From Desulfuromonadales bacterium (GTDB lineage: Bacteria; Desulfobacterota; Desulfuromonadia; Desulfuromonadales; BM103): a stretch of 38,370 nt of DNA. The DNA is taken from contig JAMONP010000041.1 of the NCBI GenBank assembly GCA_027065695.1, forward strand, positions 1 through 38,370, read 5' to 3'. Of the stretch, positions 1 to 32,233 are shown one piece after another. How positions within the stretch are numbered: the stretch's first letter is position 1; the number at the start of each line of letters is the position of its first letter. The notes under the pieces were generated by a model. That model saw nothing but the letters and a program-made list of their open reading frames with translations. It had not been told where the DNA came from and searched no databases. Position numbers and translations under genes: made by a program.

Positions 1-344
1 AACCTGCTACAGGGAGTACCTACCTGAAGTTCGGCTTGCGAAAATCAGGCGCTCTGGCAGTGGTCGGTGTGGCGGTAGCGGTCACGGTAGAAGAGGGTGT
101 TCTGGTTGATGCTCGTATTGTCATGGGAGCGGTTGCACCTATCCCCTTGCGGGCAAAAAAAGCTGAAGAGCTCCTCAGGGGCCAGACAATTACCGATGAT
201 CTGTTGGAAGAGGCGGCAAATATGGCTTGCTCCGAATGTACCCCGATAACGGATATCAGAGGTTCGGCGGAATATCGTCGCGACCTGGTCAGGGTGCTGA
301 CGAGACGCGCTCTTCGTAAAGCTATCGATGAAGGTCATGTATAA
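1..344 (+). CDS. Xanthine dehydrogenase-family FAD-binding subunit, C-terminal part (5' truncated by window)
   Basis: The reading frame is open from base 3, so the gene starts outside the window; the in-frame TTG at 36 is not a real start. About 113 residues are visible. They match the C-terminal FAD-subunit domain of molybdenum hydroxylases (CO dehydrogenase flavoprotein C-terminal fold), with a core 'GALAVVGVAVAVTV' followed by 'ARIVMGAVAPIPLRAKKAEE', where the family usually has a similar 'A.G.VAP.P.R...AE' stretch. In this family the FAD subunit passes electrons from the [2Fe-2S] clusters to the acceptor. The stop codon is 12 bases before the [2Fe-2S] subunit, whose ribosome binding site (AAGGGAG) lies in the gap, so the two are co-transcribed. 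The substrate cannot be read from this fragment. Confidence 0.9.
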   Translation, partial: PATGSTYLKFGLRKSGALAVVGVAVAVTVEEGVLVDARIVMGAVAPIPLRAKKAEELLRGQTITDDLLEEAANMACSECTPITDIRGSAEYRRDLVRVLTRRALRKAIDEGHV

Positions 345-356
345 AGGGAGAATGAC

Positions 357-905
357 ATGCTTAATCAGACTATTACTGATAATGAAGGGGTGAAACGCTA
401 CCTGATCACCCTCAATGTAAATGGCGATACTCACACCGTGCTGGTGAAGGGCAATGCAATTCTGGCCAATGTCCTGCGTGACGAACTTAATCTCACCGGC
501 ACCAAAAAGGGCTGTGAGCTTGGTGACTGCGGCTCTTGCACCGTACTCCTGGAAGGCAAACCGGTGGACTCCTGCATGGTGCTCGCCATGGAAGCAGACG
601 GTCGCGAGATCACCACGATAGAGGGTGTGGCGGTCAACAGTAAACTCGACGCAGTCCAGGAAGCAATGCTCAACTACACGGCGGTACAGTGTGGCTACTG
701 CACCCCCGGTATGGTGCTCTCTGCCAAGGCCCTTCTGACCCGCAATCCACATCCAACCGAGCCAGAAGTCCGGGAAGCGATTTCCGGTAATCTCTGTCGC
801 TGTACTGGGTATGTCCATATCGTCGAAGCAGTTATGGCTGCTTCCGAGGGACGTCTGGTTCCAGAAGACTACAAAAGCAGTAAGGCAGAAGGAGAATCCG
901 CATGA
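357..905 (+). CDS. Xanthine dehydrogenase-family [2Fe-2S] subunit
   Basis: This 182-residue protein is the small electron-transfer subunit of a molybdenum hydroxylase. Two [2Fe-2S] sites are visible. The plant-ferredoxin-like N-terminal domain has Cys53, Cys58, Cys61 and Cys73 ('CELGDCGSC' plus a later Cys). The C-terminal four-helix domain has Cys112, Cys115, Cys147 and Cys149 ('CGYC' and 'CRC'). All eight ligands are present, so the chain from the Mo site to FAD looks intact. Length is near the family norm of about 160 residues, with some 15 extra at the N-terminus and a tail at the C-terminus. The start is ATG with AAGGGAG upstream. The stop overlaps the start of the Mo subunit by ATGA, consistent with translational coupling. 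Confidence 0.95.
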   Translation: MLNQTITDNEGVKRYLITLNVNGDTHTVLVKGNAILANVLRDELNLTGTKKGCELGDCGSCTVLLEGKPVDSCMVLAMEADGREITTIEGVAVNSKLDAVQEAMLNYTAVQCGYCTPGMVLSAKALLTRNPHPTEPEVREAISGNLCRCTGYVHIVEAVMAASEGRLVPEDYKSSKAEGESA

Positions 906-3229
906 GCAGCGAACGTAAAGACGAATATAAAGTCATAGGCCACAGTGTCCCCCGCATCGACGGCCCGGAAAAAGTCACCGGAGCGGCCAAGTACACCCTC
1001 GACCTGAAATTTCCCAACATGCTTTACGGTAAAATCCTGACCAGCCCCCACGCTCATGCGCGGATCATTTCCATTGATACTTCCGAGGCCGAGGCGCTAC
1101 CGGGAGTCAAGGCGGTCATCACCCACGAGCATGTGCCGACCTTGAAGTACGGTCTCAGCCCGGCCCGCTGGGACGAGAATATCTTCTGCAGCGACAAGGT
1201 CCGCTTCGTTGGCGATAAGGTCGCTGCGGTGGCCTGCCTCGATGAAAGCACCTGTTACAAGGCCCTGAAACTTATCAAAGTGGAATACGAAGTCCTGCCA
1301 GCCGTACTCGACTTCACCACCGCCATGGATGAGGGACAACCCTTGGTACACGAAGAATATGAACGTAATATCAACACCGAGATCCATCAGGAGTTCGGCG
1401 ACGTCGACAAGGCTTTTGCCGAAGCATACCACGTGCGCACCGACACCTTTATCGGCCAGCGGACCTACCAGTGTCCAATCGAACCGCATACTGCCATTTC
1501 CATGTGGGATAATAACAAACTCACCGTCTACTCCAGCACCCAGTCACCGCACTATTTCCAGTATTACATTGCCCGTGAGTTCGGCCTGGACATGGGTGAT
1601 GTCCGCATCATCAAGCCCTTTGTGGGTGGCGGTTTCGGTGGCAAACTTGAACCGACCGGACTGGAGTTTGCCGGTGCCGTACTCGCTAAACGCACCAGTC
1701 GACCGGTGAGAATGTTCTACGACCGAGCCGAGATGTTTGCCCATAATCGCGGCCGGCACGCACAACAGATGGAGATCACCTCCGGTGTCGACAAAAACGG
1801 TAAGATCCTGGTTATTCATGCCAATTTCAAGATGGATGGTGGCGCCTATACCAGCCTGGGGATTGCCAGTGCCTACTACGCAGGCGCGCTGCTGCCGATG
1901 ACCTACGAGTTCGACAACTACAAATTCGACATGTATCGGGCTTACACCAACCTACCGGCCTGCGGTGCCCAGCGTGGCCACGGTGCCCCCCAGCCCAAAT
2001 ACGCCTTTGAGAGCCACCTTGACAATGTTGCCAAGGACCTGGGAATTGATCCCATGGATATCCGGATTCTTAACGCTCGACGAGAGAACACCGAGACTCC
2101 CAATAATTTCAAGGTCAATTCCTGCCATATGCGTGAGTGTCTGGAAAAGGTCCGGGAAATGTCGGACTGGGACGAGAAGAAGAAACATAAGATTCCAGGC
2201 CGTGGCGTCGGGGTTTCAACCGGGAGCTTTGTAACCGGTGCCGGTTATCCAATCTATCGTACCGATCTGCCCCATTCGTCGGCCTTCATCAGAATTAACG
2301 AGGATGGTACGGCGGCGACCCTTTATACCGGAGCGGTTGAAATCGGCCAGGGTTCAGATACTGTCCTCTGCCAGATGGCCGCCGAGGCCATGGGTTACCG
2401 CTATGAGCATATGAAGATCATCGCAGCGGACACCGAAATCACCCCCATGGACTTAGGAGCTTATGCCAGTCGCCAGACCTATATGTCTGGAACCGCTGTC
2501 AAAATGGCTGGTGAAGAAATCAAAAAACAGATCATCGAGATGGCATCAGCCATGCTCTCCCTGCCGGTGAGCGACCTTGACTGTGACGACGGCATTGTTT
2601 TCTCGTTGTCCCGCGAGGGCAAAGCCCTCACCTTCGAGGAAGTAGCACGCAAGCACTTCGTTCTTAAGGGGCCTCTGCTCGGCAAAGGTGTCTACACCCC
2701 ACCCAAGCTGGGTGGTACCTTCAAAGGAGCTCCGGTCGGAACGTCTCCAGCCTACAGCTTTGGCGCTCAGGTCGGTGAGGTGCAGATCGACGAGGAAACT
2801 GGACAAATTGATGTCTTAGGTATCTGGGACGCGCATGACTGTGGTAAAGTGATCAACCCACGTCTTCTGCATGGCCAGGTGCATGGCGCACTGTTCATGG
2901 GCATGGGAGAATCATGTTGGGAAGAGGTTCGCTATGACGACAAGGGCAAAATCATAAACCCTGAACTGGCCAACTACCTGTTTCTGACTGCGATGGACAT
3001 GCCGCCGATTGAATCCGAGGTGCTCGACACCTACGAGCCAACCGGGCCATGGGGAGCAAAAGAAGTCGGCGAAGGAGCCACCAATCCGACCCTGGGGATG
3101 TTTTCCAACGCTATATTCGACGCCATGGGGGTGCGGGTCAACAGCCTGCCACTTACCTACGAGAAAGTGTGGCGAGCCCTCAAAGAGAAGCGCGAGCTCG
3201 AAGAGGCAGAAAAAAACAAAAAGAGTTGA
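902..3229 (+). CDS. Xanthine dehydrogenase-family molybdenum-binding (catalytic) subunit
   Basis: This 775-residue subunit carries the molybdopterin active site of a hydroxylase of the xanthine dehydrogenase/4-hydroxybenzoyl-CoA reductase/nicotinate dehydrogenase group. The aldehyde-oxidase 'hammerhead' domain is N-terminal (from about residue 19, 'IDGPEKVTGAAKYTLD'). Cofactor-binding loops include 'GGGFGGK' near residue 242 and 'EIGQGSDTV' in the middle. The C-terminal 'AKEVGEGATNP' holds Glu724, at the position of the catalytic base in the family. Which ring or aldehyde it hydroxylates is not clear. The adjacent YqeB/YqeC genes suggest a selenium-dependent enzyme, as in some purine, xanthine and nicotinate hydroxylases. 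The start overlaps the upstream stop by four bases. Confidence 0.95.
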   Translation: MSSERKDEYKVIGHSVPRIDGPEKVTGAAKYTLDLKFPNMLYGKILTSPHAHARIISIDTSEAEALPGVKAVITHEHVPTLKYGLSPARWDENIFCSDKVRFVGDKVAAVACLDESTCYKALKLIKVEYEVLPAVLDFTTAMDEGQPLVHEEYERNINTEIHQEFGDVDKAFAEAYHVRTDTFIGQRTYQCPIEPHTAISMWDNNKLTVYSSTQSPHYFQYYIAREFGLDMGDVRIIKPFVGGGFGGKLEPTGLEFAGAVLAKRTSRPVRMFYDRAEMFAHNRGRHAQQMEITSGVDKNGKILVIHANFKMDGGAYTSLGIASAYYAGALLPMTYEFDNYKFDMYRAYTNLPACGAQRGHGAPQPKYAFESHLDNVAKDLGIDPMDIRILNARRENTETPNNFKVNSCHMRECLEKVREMSDWDEKKKHKIPGRGVGVSTGSFVTGAGYPIYRTDLPHSSAFIRINEDGTAATLYTGAVEIGQGSDTVLCQMAAEAMGYRYEHMKIIAADTEITPMDLGAYASRQTYMSGTAVKMAGEEIKKQIIEMASAMLSLPVSDLDCDDGIVFSLSREGKALTFEEVARKHFVLKGPLLGKGVYTPPKLGGTFKGAPVGTSPAYSFGAQVGEVQIDEETGQIDVLGIWDAHDCGKVINPRLLHGQVHGALFMGMGESCWEEVRYDDKGKIINPELANYLFLTAMDMPPIESEVLDTYEPTGPWGAKEVGEGATNPTLGMFSNAIFDAMGVRVNSLPLTYEKVWRALKEKRELEEAEKNKKS

Positions 3230-3253
3230 TTGAAGCGGAGAGGATTAAGCACC

Positions 3254-4015
3254 ATGTGGGACTGGATCAGTAAACTTGATGAATTACGCCGCCGCGACCA
3301 ATTAGCTGTTCTGGTAACGGTCACAAAAAGCAGCGGCTCGACCCCGCGCAAGCAGGGAGCCAAAATGATCGTTCTTCCTGATGGGACATTTCATGGAACG
3401 ATCGGCGGGGGAACGGTAGAGCACCATATCCTTGAGGATGCCCGAACCTGCCTTGCCGAGATGCACTCCAGTTCCGCAGAGATTCCCTTGAAACAAAAAG
3501 GAGAATTCCCCGCCTGCGGAGGGACCATGGAGATGTATATGGAAGTCATCAACCACAACCCTGCCCTCTACCTGTTCGGCGCAGGTCATATCGGCCAGGC
3601 TCTCTGCCAGATTCTCGAAGGGACGCCTTTCCGTATCCATTTGGTCGATGAACGTGATGAATGGATCAATGCACCCGGAATCCCCGACAGCACTATCCGT
3701 CATCAATGTCACTATAGCGATTTCATCGAAACCGCCAACTGGTCTGAAAAACGTTCTTTTGTTACTATCCTCACCTTCAGTGGCACTGTCGATCAACAGA
3801 TCCTCGAGGAAGTCATGCCTCATCCGACTCGTTACGTCGGTATGATCGGCAGTAAAAATAAATGGGATCGTGTGCGGAAAAACCTGCAAGAGAAAGGCTT
3901 AGACCTTTCGCAGGTCATCTGCCCCATCGGTCACGATAACGGTGGCGGTTCTCCGCAGGAAATCGCCATAAGTATAGCCAGCCAACTCCTTGCCACCTAT
4001 TATGGCCGCGAATGA
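3254..4015 (+). CDS. XdhC/CoxI-family molybdenum hydroxylase maturation protein
   Basis: This 253-residue protein belongs to the XdhC/CoxI family, which binds molybdenum cofactor and aids its sulfuration and insertion into the apoenzyme. The N-terminal XdhC_CoxI domain shows 'SSGSTPRKQGAKM' and 'GTIGGGTVEH'. The middle has 'FPACGGTMEMYME' with the family's conserved Cys. The C-terminal Rossmann domain opens with 'LYLFGAGHIGQAL' and contains 'YVGMIGSKNKW'. I start it at ATG 3254 because GGAG lies about 13 bases upstream; an in-frame TTG at 3230 would add eight residues. It immediately follows the Mo subunit. In selenium-dependent hydroxylases this family is suspected of helping load the selenido ligand, but that is family knowledge. 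Confidence 0.92.
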   Translation: MWDWISKLDELRRRDQLAVLVTVTKSSGSTPRKQGAKMIVLPDGTFHGTIGGGTVEHHILEDARTCLAEMHSSSAEIPLKQKGEFPACGGTMEMYMEVINHNPALYLFGAGHIGQALCQILEGTPFRIHLVDERDEWINAPGIPDSTIRHQCHYSDFIETANWSEKRSFVTILTFSGTVDQQILEEVMPHPTRYVGMIGSKNKWDRVRKNLQEKGLDLSQVICPIGHDNGGGSPQEIAISIASQLLATYYGRE

Positions 4016-4829
4016 AATGACAACTCCCCTGCTCAAGGATCGCACTATTATTATCAAGGGGGCAGGTGAACTGGCGACGGGGGTCGCCTGCCGGTTGTAT
4101 CGCGCCAACTTCAGGCGCATTCTCATGCTTGAGATTACTGCTCCTCTGGCGGTCAGAAGACGGGTCTCGTTCTGCGAAACTATCCATGATAAAAACATGA
4201 TGGTTGAGGGGATTGAAGCTGTCAGGGTTAACAAGGACTCCGAACTGCTAGAGGCCTGGAAGAACGGTAAGATCGCTGTCCGTGTGGATCCAAAGGCTGA
4301 GAGCCTCCACCACGACAAGCCAGCGGTTTTTATTGATGCAACCCTGGCAAAGCGAAACCTCGGCACCTGCATAAGTGATGCGCCTCTGGTCATTGCCCTT
4401 GGGCCAGGTTTTGTTGCCGGCAAGGATGCTGACGTGGTTGTCGAGACCAACCGCGGCCACGATCTCGGTCGTTTGATTCTCGCTGGAGCAGCCGAAGCAA
4501 ACACCGGAGATCCCGGCAATATCGGTGGCTACACCAAGGAACGGATTATTCGTTCTCCGGCCAATGGCATTTTTATCGCCGAAAAACAGATCGGTGATGC
4601 AGTCACCAAGGGCGACCTGATCGGCCGGGTCGGCAGAACCGCAGTGATCGCCCCCCTCGACGGCATGCTCCGTGGCCTCATCAGGCCTGAAATCTCTGTT
4701 ACCACCGGGCTGAAAATCGGCGACGTTGATCCGAGGAACGAGGTGAGTTATTGCGACACTATCTCCGAAAAGGCCAGAGCCTTGGGCGGAGCGGTTCTCG
4801 AAGCGATTCTAGCTCGTTACAACCTCTGA
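4002..4829 (+). CDS. yqeB: YqeB-family selenium-dependent molybdenum hydroxylase system protein
   Basis: This protein of about 275 residues resembles the EF2563/YqeB family, which co-occurs with orphan SelD and selenium-dependent molybdenum hydroxylases. Visible hallmarks are the N-terminal nucleotide-binding-like 'IIIKGAGELATGVACRL', 'RRRVSFCETIHDKNMMVEG', 'VFIDATLAKRN', 'ALGPGFVAGKDADVVVET' and 'RGHDLGRLI'. Its biochemical role is not established; it is thought to act in making or inserting the labile selenium ligand. ATG 4002 overlaps the XdhC-like gene by 14 bases; ATG 4017, just after the upstream stop, is an equally possible start, and neither has a clear Shine-Dalgarno, so translational coupling is likely. 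I recognise no enzymatic motif beyond the Gly-rich loop. Confidence 0.9.
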   Translation: MAANEMTTPLLKDRTIIIKGAGELATGVACRLYRANFRRILMLEITAPLAVRRRVSFCETIHDKNMMVEGIEAVRVNKDSELLEAWKNGKIAVRVDPKAESLHHDKPAVFIDATLAKRNLGTCISDAPLVIALGPGFVAGKDADVVVETNRGHDLGRLILAGAAEANTGDPGNIGGYTKERIIRSPANGIFIAEKQIGDAVTKGDLIGRVGRTAVIAPLDGMLRGLIRPEISVTTGLKIGDVDPRNEVSYCDTISEKARALGGAVLEAILARYNL

Positions 4830-4837
4830 GAGGCACC

Positions 4838-5647
4838 ATGAAGCCGATCGAAACGACCCTTCTTCGCGAACCGCGGGGAGTTCTCAGCCTCACTGGCGGA
4901 GGTGGCAAAACCAGCCTGATGTTTTACCTGGCTCAGCAACTTTCTCGTGTCGGCAAGAGGGTACTGACAACCACTACGACCAAGATCTTCTATCCGACTG
5001 CAGAACAGAGTGAAAAAGTTCTGGTCGACAGCGACCCAGAAAGCATCCTGCAACAAGTTACATCCCAACATCATTGCAACCACATCACTGCCGCGTCAGA
5101 ACTTCTGGCCAATGATTCCAAGCGCCTTCAAGCCAATGGCTCCAAACTCAAAGGATTTTCCTCCGCAGCCATCGACCTTTTTGCAAAGTCGGGGCATTTC
5201 GACTGGATCATCGTAGAAGCCGATGGCTCGGCCCGACGCCCTCTCAAAGCACCTGCGGAGCACGAACCGGTCATTCCGGCTAATACTACAGTTCTGGTCG
5301 CAGTGGCAGGTTTAGAGGTGCTCGGTTGCCCCTTGTCCGAAGATATCGTTTTTCGCTCCGAGCTTGCTGGGGCCTTGATGGGAATCTCTACTGGTGAAAC
5401 CATCACCGAATCCGCGCTGGTCAACCTCTTCAACCACCCCCTCGGTGCCTTCAAAGACGCACCTGGTCAGGCACATCGCTTCATTTTTCTCAACAAGGCC
5501 GACGACTTAAAACGGCGCGATGCTGCAGCCAGGATCGCTGCGCTGCTTTGTCATAATCCTCAGACTGTTGCCGAATCATTGCTCGTTGGTCAAGCATTGA
5601 ATGGAATCGATATTCACGCTGAATATCCTTTGACGCACACGCCATGA
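4838..5647 (+). CDS. yqeC: YqeC-family putative selenium-dependent hydroxylase accessory protein
   Basis: This 269-residue protein matches the YqeC family of selenium-dependent molybdenum hydroxylase clusters. The N-terminal P-loop is 'LTGGGGKTSLMFYLA' (Walker A type GxxxxGKT), followed by 'GKRVLTTTTTKIFYP'. Further on are 'DWIIVEADGSARRPLKAPA' and 'FIFLNKADD', which resemble the D-x-x-G and N-K-x-D elements of G3E-type GTPases. An NTP-driven maturation or insertion step is therefore likely, though the true reaction is unknown. ATG 4838 is chosen because GAGAGG lies 4 bases upstream; an in-frame start at 4751 would overlap the yqeB-like gene widely. Its stop overlaps the MocA-like start (ATGA). 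Confidence 0.9.
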   Translation: MKPIETTLLREPRGVLSLTGGGGKTSLMFYLAQQLSRVGKRVLTTTTTKIFYPTAEQSEKVLVDSDPESILQQVTSQHHCNHITAASELLANDSKRLQANGSKLKGFSSAAIDLFAKSGHFDWIIVEADGSARRPLKAPAEHEPVIPANTTVLVAVAGLEVLGCPLSEDIVFRSELAGALMGISTGETITESALVNLFNHPLGAFKDAPGQAHRFIFLNKADDLKRRDAAARIAALLCHNPQTVAESLLVGQALNGIDIHAEYPLTHTP

Positions 5648-6249
5648 AACCCTCTTCAAAAGTCACCGGGATCATCCTGGCAGCAGGAGCAAGTTCCCGC
5701 ATGAACAGGACCAAACAACTGCTCCCTTTTCGCGGACAGACTATGCTGGAATGTGTGGTCGATAGCGCTCTGGCCTCTTCCCTGCACCGGATTGTCGTCG
5801 TCCTTGGTCACGAGTCTGAATTACTTGTACCACTGCTGGTGAACAGAGACGTCACCGTCAGCCATAACCGCCACTACGACAAGGGACAGAGTTCCTCGAT
5901 CAAGACCGGCCTGCACTCGCTTACAGAGGAGGCTGACGCCGCCCTTTTTCTTCTCGGCGACCAACCGCTCGTCACCCCGGAGATTATCAACCTGATTCTC
6001 GCTGCCTGCGAAGCATCTCCCAGCCCCATTGTTCTGCCTGTTTTCAATGAGAAACGCGGTAACCCAGCCCTTTTCAGCCGAGAGACCTTTCCTCGCCTCG
6101 CGACCCTCAAAGAGGACTACGGTGCCCGCCCCCTCTTTGAAGAGTATGCTAATCGCATTCTCAAGGTTCCCGTATCCGACCCCGCTATCCACTTTGATGT
6201 CGATACGGAAGAGGATTACCGCAAGCTCCTGCTTTTGGAACATCAGTAG
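5644..6249 (+). CDS. mocA: MocA-like molybdenum cofactor cytidylyltransferase (NTP transferase family)
   Basis: This 201-residue nucleotidyltransferase belongs to the MobA/MocA group. MocA enzymes transfer CMP from CTP to molybdopterin to form MCD, the cofactor form used by many xanthine dehydrogenase-family enzymes. The N-terminal signature is 'GIILAAGASSRMNRTKQLL' (the usual glycine after RM is Asn here). 'LFLLGDQPLVTP' carries the metal-binding Asp, and 'NEKRGNPALF' and 'FDVDTEEDYRKL' are also typical. It is the last gene of the operon, overlapping yqeC by four bases. Placement next to a Mo hydroxylase favours MocA over the GMP-transferring MobA, but substrate specificity cannot be proved from sequence alone. 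Confidence 0.88.
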   Translation: MKPSSKVTGIILAAGASSRMNRTKQLLPFRGQTMLECVVDSALASSLHRIVVVLGHESELLVPLLVNRDVTVSHNRHYDKGQSSSIKTGLHSLTEEADAALFLLGDQPLVTPEIINLILAACEASPSPIVLPVFNEKRGNPALFSRETFPRLATLKEDYGARPLFEEYANRILKVPVSDPAIHFDVDTEEDYRKLLLLEHQ

Positions 6250-6486: not shown

Positions 6487-8817
6487 ATGAGCATGGATAT
6501 TCAGACAAAGGTTAAACAACTTGCGGCACGAATGTACGAACACCCCCAGTACCCGACTCAAGGGGCAGTGATTTTCGTTGACCTCGCGAAACAAGAGTAC
6601 TTTTCCAGGTACTTGCCCGTTGAGGTCGTCCACAATTTTCTCACCAATCGTGGCGGGAACATGTTTTTACTCTACAATCTCCTCCTAGATGGCAAAAAGC
6701 CTCTCGACCCACAGGTCCCCATGATTTTCGGTAGCGGTGCTCTTACGGGACGTGTTCCCACGGCTACCCGCGGCAACGTCAGCGGTATCTCTCCTGAAAG
6801 TGATGCCATCCTTGACAGCAGCTGTGGAGATGCTTTTCCTACTTTCCTCAAATTTCACGGTTATGATCACCTGGTCCTCTACGGTCAGGCCACGGCATGG
6901 ACTCTCCTGCAAATTTCAGCAGACAGGATCAGCTTTCACGATGCCACCAGTTACCGGGGGATGGACAACACAGATTTTACCCAAGCGATAGAGAATGATT
7001 ATTCCTGCACCGAACGCAAGGATATGGCCATGGCCAGAATCACCAGTGCCGGGGAAAACCTGGTCCTCTGTTCGGGTATTATGGGGGGAGCCAAAGCCAT
7101 CTATGCCCGTGGAGGAGCTGGCGCCAAAATGGGTTCGCTCAAACTCAAAGCCGTTATGACTCTGGGTCGCTACGCTTCCCCATCGCTCTCTACAACCTTC
7201 AAGCAAAACAACAAGGAGATCGCAAAAAAAATCCTTGAGGCCAGTGCCATCAAGAATGCTCTTAAGACTGTCGGAACACCCTTCCTCTACAAACCGAGCC
7301 GTATCCTCCATGCCATGGGAACCAAAAATAACCAGGAAACCAGCTGGCACGATTCACTCGATGCCGACAACTTTGATGTCTACCGTACCGGGATGGACGG
7401 TTGCTTCAAATGCCCGGTTCATTGCCGCCCTCTCAATGATATGACTCCTGAAGGTAAAGGCGGATGGGGCACCAATGCTCTCAAAGGGCTAACTGGCAAC
7501 GCCAGTTACGATCAGAAACAGGCCGAAAGCGTACATCGGAAGGAGAAGTCTTATAAGGGGGTCAACGACGATGGCAAATATGATCGTTTCGACAAAGGTG
7601 ACGGTCCGGAGTATGTCACCTTGCAGAAAATGGGTCCTATGATCGGCATCAAAGAACCGGAACAGGTCCTACGTCTGAACAACATCCTCAATGAACTCGG
7701 CCTTGATTCTTCCAGTACAGGAAGCGCCATTTCATGGGCTATGGAACTCTATCAGCGCGGTATTATCACCACCAGGGACACCGGCGGACTCGATCTGAAC
7801 TGGGGAGATTACGAAGTCATCGAAAAGCTTCTCTTCATGACTGCCCGACGGCAAGGCTTCGGCGATGTTATCGCCGACTCCAGCCGTGCTGTGGAAAAGG
7901 GGAAATACCCACAGGAGGCACTCAAATACCGGATGGCTGTTAAGGGACTATTCCAGAGCGACCCCCATGATGCGCGCATCCTCAAAGGCTTCGCTCTTGG
8001 CCTGGCCGTCGCAACCCGCGGAATGGACCATCTGCGGAATCGTCCCACCCTCGAAATCAATGCAAAGATCAACGACAACTGCGAAGCCAAAACCGCCCTA
8101 TACGGCGGCTATGTCGCACCGGATCCAACCAGCTACGAAGGGAAGGAATATGCCGTCAGCCGATGTGAAAGCACTTACGCTGTCGGTGATGCCGTCGGCA
8201 TGTGCCGCTTCGCGACCAAGCTCTTCAACTCCCCATCAACCGCTGGCTACGAGGATTTTGCCACCCAACTGCAGGAATTGACTGGTGAAGAATTCACTGC
8301 TGAACAACTCAACAAGGTCGGGCGTAATATCACCGGGGTGGAACGACTCATCAATGCGCGCCTTGGTCTGACCGAAAAAGACGACACCCTCCCCGAACGC
8401 TGGTTTGATGATGAGATCAAGACCGGCCCATTCGCTGGCGAGAGAATCGACCGGACCCAGTTCGAGGAACTCAAATCATGCTACTATGACATCACCGGCC
8501 TGAATTCTGCCGGCCTCCCGGCGCTTGCATGGCACCGGGATCTCGCCGAAACCCTTACCGGCTTCGCCGTCCAGGTCAGCCTGCCAGCCAACACCCCTGG
8601 GGCTCCGGAAGATGCTGTCATCATTGACCAGCCGGTCGCCAACGTTACCGAACTCAGAGCTGCACTGAACAAGCGGCTTCCTGATGCAGTCAACCAATTA
8701 GAAGACTGTAGTCTGGTTATTCTTGTTAATGACAAAATTGTCCTATCCGGCGAGAAAACCTTTCCCATCCAAAACGGAGACGAGGTCACACTTCTGGCAA
8801 TGCTTTCCGGGGGGTAA
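6487..8817 (+). CDS. Aldehyde:ferredoxin oxidoreductase with fused C-terminal MoaD-like domain
   Basis: This 776-residue tungsten (or molybdenum) pterin enzyme oxidises aldehydes, or reduces acids, using ferredoxin. The AOR N-terminal domain includes 'GALTGRVPTATRGNVSG' and 'ARGGAGAKMGSLKLKAV'. The [4Fe-4S] site is Cys306, Cys309, Cys313 ('CFKCPVHC') plus Cys573 in 'DAVGMCRFA'. The AOR fold ends near residue 690 ('YYDITGLNSAGLPALAWHR'). The last ~80 residues are different: 'VTELRAALNKRLPD', 'VILVNDKIVLSGEK', 'NGDEVTLLAMLSGG', a MoaD/ThiS beta-grasp domain ending in the diagnostic Gly-Gly. Start is uncertain: ATG 6487 with GGAG 11 bases upstream, or TTG 6481 with GGAG 5 bases upstream. The ferredoxin encoded at 15704-15874 is a plausible redox partner. 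Confidence 0.93.
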   Translation: MSMDIQTKVKQLAARMYEHPQYPTQGAVIFVDLAKQEYFSRYLPVEVVHNFLTNRGGNMFLLYNLLLDGKKPLDPQVPMIFGSGALTGRVPTATRGNVSGISPESDAILDSSCGDAFPTFLKFHGYDHLVLYGQATAWTLLQISADRISFHDATSYRGMDNTDFTQAIENDYSCTERKDMAMARITSAGENLVLCSGIMGGAKAIYARGGAGAKMGSLKLKAVMTLGRYASPSLSTTFKQNNKEIAKKILEASAIKNALKTVGTPFLYKPSRILHAMGTKNNQETSWHDSLDADNFDVYRTGMDGCFKCPVHCRPLNDMTPEGKGGWGTNALKGLTGNASYDQKQAESVHRKEKSYKGVNDDGKYDRFDKGDGPEYVTLQKMGPMIGIKEPEQVLRLNNILNELGLDSSSTGSAISWAMELYQRGIITTRDTGGLDLNWGDYEVIEKLLFMTARRQGFGDVIADSSRAVEKGKYPQEALKYRMAVKGLFQSDPHDARILKGFALGLAVATRGMDHLRNRPTLEINAKINDNCEAKTALYGGYVAPDPTSYEGKEYAVSRCESTYAVGDAVGMCRFATKLFNSPSTAGYEDFATQLQELTGEEFTAEQLNKVGRNITGVERLINARLGLTEKDDTLPERWFDDEIKTGPFAGERIDRTQFEELKSCYYDITGLNSAGLPALAWHRDLAETLTGFAVQVSLPANTPGAPEDAVIIDQPVANVTELRAALNKRLPDAVNQLEDCSLVILVNDKIVLSGEKTFPIQNGDEVTLLAMLSGG

Positions 8818-8897: not shown

Positions 8898-8974
<77 letters not shown>

Positions 8975-30211: not shown

Positions 30212-30358
30212 GAGAACCTAAGGAGACGGGGTCAGAGACGGGTAGAGTAGAGAGCAGGTCTCGGCAGTTTTAGGTTTGGCTTGTCTGTTTCCGTCACTTT
30301 CGTTTGACGGTGCCTAAATAGCCTTACCATGACTTCTTTGACCAGCCCTCCCTCATCA

Positions 30359-30389
30359 AACCGTGCGTGCGGTTTTCCCGCACACGGCT
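30359..30389 (-). ncRNA. Group II intron domain V
   Basis: On the minus strand this 31-nt hairpin starts AGCCGTGTGCGG and ends CCGCACGCACGGTT, with an A-rich terminal loop. AGC at the base matches the catalytic triad position of domain V. It is about 13 bases beyond the reverse transcriptase stop codon and about 115 bases before the proposed intron 3' end, leaving room for an enlarged domain VI. Confidence 0.85.
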
Positions 30390-30401
30390 TTCCGATGTCC
30401 T

Positions 30402-31739: not shown

Positions 31740-32233
31740 ATCTGCAATCCCCTAACCTTCCACTCTTCAGTTGCATGAACAAAGTAGGGTTCCTTCCCTC
31801 GGGCAGGGTTATGTTGTCCCATGCCCTCAAGCGGTACTATGAACCCCTCCGACTCCCGATACGGCCCTTGGTGATTTCGGTCTCCCTTATACACCTTGGT
31901 TAGCACTCCTCACGAGCCGCCGCATCGGGTCTCCAGCACTGGGTTGAATATCTTCCACAACATGCCATCCCTGCTACCCCGGAAGATTGCAGGGCCGTTT
32001 CCGTTATCAGAACCCATGCACAACGACCTTCCCCATATGACCATAGGGTCGGCATCTTCAATCAAATTTACGAGGCTACATACGGGTTCACTTTCGTTAC
32101 GGCCTGCTGCTTTGCCAATTGGGAACTCACGACCCTTGATTGCTCAAACGCCGCTCCCTTGAACTACCGGGACGAACGGATAATTCCCCGGACGGGACTT
32201 CAACCCGCTAGATATTCAACTGTTACTGCGAAC

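What the first reader, a model, noticed from the sequence alone, without database searches (positions are those of the whole stretch)
6487..8817. Aldehyde:ferredoxin oxidoreductase carrying its own MoaD-like sulfur carrier
The AOR fold is complete by about residue 690, with all four cluster cysteines. The next 80 residues form a MoaD/ThiS-like beta-grasp domain ending in Gly-Gly at the natural C-terminus. MoaD normally donates sulfur to make molybdopterin as a separate, thiocarboxylated protein. In Aromatoleum a MoaD-like gene (aorD) sits beside AOR as a separate gene. Here it is one chain, so the enzyme may deliver, receive or sense the dithiolene sulfur in cis, or the tail may be cleaved off. 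I cannot say how widespread the fusion is.
Basis: partly seen in the sequence, partly recalled or inferred. Interest (0 to 1): 0.72.

Follow-up and report, generated by a model that had tools for sequence, protein, structure and literature searches.

The report
Tungsten enzyme with built-in sulfur carrier
One gene joins a tungsten-type aldehyde-oxidising enzyme to the small sulfur-carrier protein that is normally made separately to build its cofactor; the join is real and conserved in many bacteria, and it offers a way to test how such carriers are matched to their enzymes.

Summary
Window 6487-8817 is one 776-residue frame: an AOR/WOR-family enzyme with four cluster cysteines, then a MoaD/ThiS-type beta-grasp domain ending in Gly-Gly-stop. 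It is no frameshift: 78 named loci, mostly delta- and betaproteobacterial, carry it, and 77 of 78 end in Gly-Gly-stop; the other runs off its contig. Both glycines are invariant in 77 of 77 aligned proteins while all four Gly codons are used. The twelve members put in a tree form one clade (100/100). The architecture was noted for Azoarcus in 2006 (PMC1779556); my searches found no study of it.

Added here: its breadth; a nearly fixed junction length; an extra stretch of about 45 residues between cluster motif and active site, absent from 20 unfused AORs; and replaced catalytic-shell residues Glu313 and Tyr427. Best reading: the tail is an E1-activated sulfur carrier coupled to maturation of its own enzyme's cofactor. 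Activation, sulfur transfer and cis delivery are inferred, not shown. The host has no detectable MoaE, but 28 of 36 other carriers tested have one.

The parts
6487..8817 (+). AOR-MoaD fusion gene, 776 codons plus stop
   Evidence: 78 named loci carry a homologue
6565..7161 (+). AFOR_N domain, residues 27-225
   Evidence: Pfam 137 bits, cut-off 29.8
7210..8541 (+). AFOR_C domain, residues 242-685
   Evidence: Pfam 303.6 bits, cut-off 27
7402..7425 (+). CxxCxxxC cluster motif, Cys306, Cys309, Cys313
   Evidence: present in 77 of 77
7426..7608 (+). stretch 314-374, about 45 residues longer than in unfused AORs
   Evidence: Cys313 to Glu375 is 62 residues in 76 of 77 fused proteins, 12-21 in 20 of 20 unfused AORs aligned
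7603..7617 (+). active-site motif GPEYV 373-377; position of PfAOR Glu313 is Val377
   Evidence: V 62, I 12, T 2, S 1 of 77
7966..7968 (+). His494 at the position of PfAOR Tyr427
   Evidence: His in 77 of 77
8029..8043 (+). His515 (PfAOR His448, kept) to Arg519 (PfAOR Tyr452 position)
   Evidence: both invariant in 77 of 77
8203..8205 (+). Cys573, fourth cluster cysteine
   Evidence: 77 of 77
8524..8568 (+). junction: helix 680-690 and short connection to the first strand
   Evidence: model; Trp682 to C-terminus 95 residues in 75 of 77
8569..8814 (+). MoaD-type beta-grasp domain, residues 695-776
   Evidence: Pfam ThiS 709-776; fold matches
8809..8814 (+). terminal Gly775-Gly776
   Evidence: 77 of 77, all four Gly codons used at both

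Best explanation
The gene makes a pyranopterin (by family, probably tungsten) oxidoreductase that carries its own MoaD-type sulfur carrier at its C-terminus. A MoeB/ThiF-type E1 encoded elsewhere in the genome adenylates the terminal glycine, and a sulfur donor turns it into a thiocarboxylate. The tethered carrier then gives its sulfur to the dithiolene of the pyranopterin destined for this enzyme, inside the same chain or dimer or through a cofactor-building partner bound to it. Shown: fusion, predicted fold, invariant Gly-Gly end, one clade in the sample, E1-type genes in the host. Inferred: activation, sulfur transfer, and service to the enzyme's own cofactor. The substrate is probably an aldehyde or related intermediate of aromatic or 2-oxo-acid catabolism (from neighbouring genes), but the changed catalytic shell leaves the reaction open.
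For: ThiS family over cut-off and MoaD/SAMP1 fold. Gly-Gly-stop in 77 of 78 named loci, the other cut by its contig; both Gly invariant in 77 of 77 with all four codons used. Purifying selection on the tail: pooled pN/pS 0.37 over 34 pairs. Near-constant junction length. Five ThiF-type E1 places over the cut-off in the host, one with a stop in the match and one apparently thiamine-linked. Four other AORs of the host have a separate MoaD-like neighbour, and such neighbours are known elsewhere (PMC1779556; WorX in PMC13328260). In T. kodakarensis one carrier, UblB, is needed for one tungsten enzyme, GOR, and the authors suggest that sulfur might be added after the apo-cofactor has bound its enzyme (PMC11323500, passages).
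Against: No activation, thiocarboxylate or transfer was observed; these tools cannot. The tail is less conserved than the AOR part (pN/pS 0.37 against 0.22) and scores far below the NCBIfam moaD cut-off (19.6 of 66.15 bits). No E1-type gene was found in the flanks with a profile made from host E1s. In T. kodakarensis all three carriers can serve AOR and FOR, so carriers need not be dedicated. The model is unsure (pLDDT under 50) at residues 310-351, 487-496 and 506-528, that is at the insert and round the active site, so docking of the tail there is untested.
Confidence: 0.55

Rival explanations
1. The tethered domain works as an ordinary MoaD in trans: it partners MoaE and supplies molybdopterin for the whole cell, and the fusion only fixes dosage and timing.
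For: MoaE is present in 28 of 36 named carriers tested; closest solved structures to the tail alone are MoaD of molybdopterin synthase.
Against: No MoaE was found in the host or in any of the 22 fusion-bearing genomes of its order, although the same model rings in 39 of the 136. The host also has separate MoaD-like genes.
Confidence: 0.2
2. The tail is a structural or regulatory module: the beta-grasp packs on the AOR core, and the Gly-Gly end gates or senses the cofactor site without carrying sulfur.
For: Near-constant junction length and confident helix-to-strand junction; the extra stretch near the active site is present in the fused proteins and absent from the unfused ones aligned.
Against: A purely structural role does not require exactly two terminal glycines followed by the stop in 77 of 78 loci.
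Confidence: 0.12
3. The tail is cut off after translation and acts as a free MoaD.
For: It would reconcile the fusion with free MoaD elsewhere; no direct evidence.
Against: Hardly any linker in the model, near-constant spacing, and conserved residues across the junction such as Trp682, His683 and Thr691.
Confidence: 0.07
4. The tail is a ubiquitin-like tag that joins to lysines, as SAMPs do.
For: By Z-score the closest structure to the tail in the full-length model is SAMP1 (tied with several others); the T. kodakarensis carriers both move sulfur and conjugate (PMC11323500, passages).
Against: No conjugation or deconjugation family appeared among the 20 neighbour clusters that I annotated; JAB peptidases were not searched for in the genome.
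Confidence: 0.05

Closest known systems
AOR-MoaD fusion of Azoarcus noted by Iyer, Burroughs and Aravind 2006 (PMC1779556; passages)
   Same: MoaD fused to the carboxyl end of an aldehyde ferredoxin oxidoreductase; Azoarcus and Aromatoleum loci in my set carry it.
   Different: Mentioned in one sentence ('might be fused') and one table comment for one organism; I did not see their sequence, so identity with this clade is likely but not checked. Extent, invariance, extra stretch and changed shell are not in the passages seen.
Class I WOR with a separate ThiS-like WorX gene (PMC13328260; passages); aorD/aorE of Aromatoleum (PMC6365974; passages)
   Same: AOR/WOR large subunit coupled genetically to a ThiS/MoaD-like protein.
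   Different: There the carrier is a separate gene, here the same chain. AorD and AorE were not in the purified A. aromaticum enzyme.
MoaD, small subunit of molybdopterin synthase (for example 1fm0_D)
   Same: Predicted beta-grasp fold and Gly-Gly end.
   Different: MoaD is free or, in some organisms, fused to MoaE; here it is attached to an enzyme that uses the cofactor. Sequence similarity is weak.
AOR sensu stricto of Pyrococcus furiosus (1aor)
   Same: Two AOR domains, cluster cysteines, Thr243 and His448.
   Different: Glu313, Tyr427 and Tyr452 replaced, about 45 extra residues before the active-site motif, MoaD tail.
ThiS fused to sulfite reductase in some actinobacteria (PMC1779556; passage)
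   Same: A sulfur carrier at the C-terminus of a redox enzyme.
   Different: Different enzyme family; not compared here.

Membership tests
AOR/WOR family (large subunit) | AFOR_N and AFOR_C domains | tested here: met
   both over cut-off; 1aor_A Z 37.6
AOR/WOR family (large subunit) | four cysteines of the 4Fe-4S cluster | tested here: met
   77 of 77
AOR/WOR family (large subunit) | tungsten or molybdenum bis-pterin cofactor | not testable with these tools
   needs purified enzyme
AOR sensu stricto (aldehyde oxidising) | second-shell set Thr243, Glu313, Tyr427, His448 (PMC12096430, passages) | tested here: not met
   Thr and His kept in 77 of 77; Glu313 replaced in 77 of 77; Tyr427 is His in 77 of 77. 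The review says single substitutions such as Tyr to His occur in known enzymes
ThiS/MoaD sulfur-carrier superfamily | family profile over its curated cut-off | tested here: met
   PF02597 28.6 bits, cut-off 22.5
ThiS/MoaD sulfur-carrier superfamily | beta-grasp fold | tested here: met
   predicted models and matches
ThiS/MoaD sulfur-carrier superfamily | C-terminal Gly-Gly | tested here: met
   77 of 78 loci, one cut by its contig
ThiS/MoaD sulfur-carrier superfamily | adenylation and thiocarboxylate at the terminal Gly | not testable with these tools
   needs E1 assay and mass spectrometry
MoaD of molybdopterin synthase (NCBIfam moaD equivalog) | TIGR01682 cut-off 66.15 bits | tested here: not met
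   window tail 19.6 bits
MoaD of molybdopterin synthase (NCBIfam moaD equivalog) | MoaE partner in the same genome | tested here: not met
   none in the host (model rings in 11 of 14 control genomes); present in 28 of 36 named carriers
WorX-type carrier beside a Class I WOR | separate neighbouring ThiS-like gene | tested here: not met
   the carrier is in the same chain

The most novel reading that the evidence does not exclude
The fused protein sulfurates its own pyranopterin in cis: the precursor is held in the AOR pocket, the extra stretch beside the active site takes the docking role that MoaE plays for MoaD, and the tethered, E1-charged Gly-Gly end delivers the dithiolene sulfur on site. 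In hosts without detectable MoaE, such as this one, the enzyme would need no classical molybdopterin synthase for its own cofactor.
Probability: 0.15. Interest if true: 0.88.

Novelty: new variant of a known kind. Interest (0 to 1): 0.6.

Why it matters
How a sulfur carrier is matched to one tungsten enzyme is an open question: the 2024 T. kodakarensis study calls the linking mechanism unknown (PMC11323500), and the 2026 WOR classification gives WorX no known exact function (PMC13328260). Here the two are tied together in one chain, so the link can be tested by removing two residues. The host also shares the puzzle reported for Geobacter metallireducens (PMC2700814): pterin enzymes but no MoaE. 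If the carrier works in cis, that would be a new way of finishing the cofactor on its enzyme. If not, the clade still marks an AOR subfamily with a changed catalytic shell and, to my knowledge, no characterised member.

Tried and rejected
Frameshift or artefact: rejected by full-length homologues. Mo/W riboswitch: none over the gathering score in the window. Viral relatives: none in viral contigs with the patterns used. Plasmids: 83 records, all under 60% identity; the 15 rows I saw have 25.7-28.5% identity and end by query residue 723, so none of those shows the whole tail; 68 were not listed.

Fusion as a general replacement for MoaE: rejected, since 28 of 36 carriers have MoaE; the genomes of the other 42 of the 78 loci were not put to that search. 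One conserved operon: rejected, neighbours vary; KorA+KorB+ferredoxin in 26 of 78 neighbourhoods, a KOR or IOR pair in 37 of 78 (window counted, L104 dropped; many flanks are cut by contig ends and gene calling was my own script). The first neighbourhood clustering, by longest frames, was spoilt by antisense frames and replaced. Fusion from a still-visible neighbour gene: in the short flanks I held (at most about 1.5 kb a side) the five nearest unfused AORs show no short frame ending in Gly-Gly and no hit to the fused-tail profile, but that profile gives the host's own free MoaDs only 9 bits or nothing, so its silence there and in the flanks of the fusion is weak evidence.

MoaE by a lineage-specific profile in the host: no match even at E 10, but the tool warns that this empty answer has no positive control; I rest, whose model rings in 11 of 14 control genomes and 39 of 136 of the order.

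Dropped rows: A2 leaves out L104 and L129 of the 78 loci; A3 uses 53 of the 78 plus the window; the tree uses 12 fused rows and 20 unfused ones chosen by me, several with long branches. The 78 loci come from 76 assemblies (L096/L122 and L099/L136 share one each) and overlap the unnamed G genomes. One search kept the best 80 of 147 relatives; its two peptide patterns favour the fused clade, so it cannot show how often AORs are unfused.

Full report
CHECK OF THE OBSERVATION. The frame 6487-8817 codes for 776 residues without interruption. Pfam finds AFOR_N (27-225), AFOR_C (242-685) and ThiS (709-776), all over their curated cut-offs. AlphaFold2 on 77 aligned members gave mean pLDDT 79.5 and pTM 0.86; blocks 681-770 score 89-96 and the last six residues 60. 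After the AOR part come helix 680-690, strands 695-698 and 710-713, helices 720-730 and 732-738, and strands 743-747, 750-752 and 766-771. Against me: residues 310-351, 487-496 and 506-528 lie under pLDDT 50, so the region round the active site is poorly modelled. Structure comparison aligns the body with 1aor_A (Z 37.6) and the tail with SAMP1 (Z 10.1), MoaD 1fm0_D (Z 9.6) and other carriers. The tail folded alone is a poorer model (pLDDT 72.1), yet its best Foldseek matches are MoaD 1nvi_D and 1fm0_D (E 3.5e-4 and 7.6e-4). By sequence the tail profile finds only weak MoaD-type matches in the PDB, best E 0.0099.

A WIDESPREAD FAMILY. In the host's order 22 of 136 genomes hold it, host included: 18 in full length, three cut by contig ends, and G001 split between two frames; a 97-residue piece in G070 is not counted. 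All 20 loci of that search whose frame reaches the C-terminus end in Gly-Gly, window included. In the phylum sample 5 of 395 genomes have it, four of them from the same order, and 4 of 399 in the order of the Aromatoleum genome G530, itself counted. The named-genome scan returned 78 loci, from records titled Geobacteraceae or Desulfuromonadales, Rhodocyclales and Burkholderiales (Aromatoleum, Azoarcus, Sulfuritalea, Polaromonas and others), Motiliproteus, Amphritea and one Rhodospirillales MAG; the 76 aligned are 62-79% identical to the window protein. Of the 78, 77 end in Gly-Gly-stop and one is cut by its contig. Eight loci hold a second fused copy close by. Twelve members that I chose form one clade (100/100, branch 1.06) among 32 AORs; the nearest unfused row is L055, whose gene is cut at its start but ends without the tail.

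THE TAIL IS UNDER SELECTION. Gly775 and Gly776 are invariant in 77 of 77 while each is written with all four glycine codons. Pooled pN/pS over 34 disjoint pairs is 0.37 for residues 709-776 and 0.22 for the AOR part: constrained, but looser. From Trp682 to the end there are 95 residues in 75 of 77.

WHAT ELSE SETS THE FUSED CLADE APART. From Cys313, last of the CxxCxxxC motif, to Glu375 (PfAOR Glu311) there are 62 residues in 76 of 77 fused proteins but 12-21 in all 20 unfused AORs aligned, the five nearest included. So tail and extra stretch appear on the same branch of this sample; that they touch is inference. Of the four second-shell residues shared by most aldehyde-oxidising AORs (Thr243, Glu313, Tyr427, His448; PMC12096430, passages), Thr and His are kept, Glu313 is V 62, I 12, T 2, S 1, and Tyr427 is His in 77 of 77; PfAOR Tyr452 is Arg519 in 77 of 77. 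The five nearest unfused AORs also lack Glu313 (S, G, T, T, A) and Tyr427 (H, V, V, V, T) and have Arg at 519, so this change seems older than the fusion. The review gives Glu313 a proton-accepting role and notes Tyr to His in one AOR and in a sulfonate-oxidising WOR. The reaction is therefore open.

SURROUNDINGS. Upstream in the window lies a 4-hydroxybenzoyl-CoA reductase-type enzyme (alpha subunit 1200.7 bits, cut-off 994.55) with XdhC-like, YqeB, YqeC and MocA-type maturation genes. The full set recurs beside the fusion only in L062 among 77 named loci. Commoner neighbours are AMP-ligase (PaaK-like), MarR, 2-oxo-acid:ferredoxin oxidoreductase and ferredoxin genes, TRAP transporters and ketopantoate-reductase-like genes. 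They point, as inference, to ferredoxin-linked catabolism of aromatic or 2-oxo acids. No ThiF-type gene was found in the flanks with a profile from five host sequences, so an E1 would have to act from elsewhere; the host has five places over the cut-off, one with a stop inside the match.

COFACTOR GENES OF THE HOST. The host has eight AORs, four with a separate MoaD-like neighbour. MoaE was not found, whereas the same model rings in 39 of 136 genomes of the order. None of the 22 fusion-bearing genomes of that order has it, against 39 of 114 others (Fisher p 0.0005); lineages are not independent, so I do not rest on that value. Among 36 named carriers 28 do have MoaE. The G. metallireducens genome paper reports the same lack and calls it unexplained (PMC2700814, passages).

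HOW IT PROBABLY WORKS. Carriers of this fold are adenylated by an E1 and loaded with sulfur at the terminal glycine (established; also PMC1779556). A carrier tethered to an enzyme that needs such sulfur, with its end strictly kept, is best read as a donor for that enzyme's cofactor. T. kodakarensis gives partial precedent: UblB alone can activate GOR, though all three carriers can serve AOR and FOR, and the authors suggest that sulfur might be added after the apo-cofactor has bound (PMC11323500, passages). Whether transfer is in cis, within a dimer or through MoaE is not decided by anything I could run.

PRIOR ART. Iyer et al. 2006 state that in Azoarcus MoaD is fused carboxyl-terminally to AOR. 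I searched papers and opened nine by passages; apart from Iyer et al. the passages I saw do not describe the fusion. Whole texts, supplements and most subscription papers were not read. The architecture is thus not new to print; extent, shared features and testability are what this report adds.

Noticed in passing
host genome G000: No MoaE (PF02391) match in a 99.95% complete genome with eight AORs and a molybdenum hydroxylase; 39 of 136 genomes of the order do have one.
   Followed up: partly
window 3-6249: 4-hydroxybenzoyl-CoA reductase-type genes (beta cut by the contig start, gamma 357-905, alpha 902-3229) with XdhC-like, YqeB, YqeC and MocA-type maturation genes, the YqeB/YqeC models being selenium-dependent.
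   Followed up: partly
L083, L088, L093, L094, L095, L102, L103, L104: A second fused AOR-MoaD reading frame near the first; each matches the fused-tail profile.
   Followed up: no
L035 (G001 C8): The copy nearest to the window within the order (77-79% identity) is split between two frames: decay or assembly error.
   Followed up: no
L057 2427-3413, L058 2430-3419: A ketopantoate-reductase-like gene (my reading) directly follows these unfused relatives; ApbA-family genes also lie near the fusion in 13 of 78 neighbourhoods.
   Followed up: no
window 30242-30392 and 31967-32201, minus strand: Two group II intron matches.
   Followed up: no
window 8901-8974, minus strand: A tRNA gene just downstream of the fusion gene, on the other strand.
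   Followed up: no
G000 contig C44, L046: Two AORs with a MoaD-like gene and a ThiF-type gene between them; the ThiF match carries one in-frame TAA.
   Followed up: no
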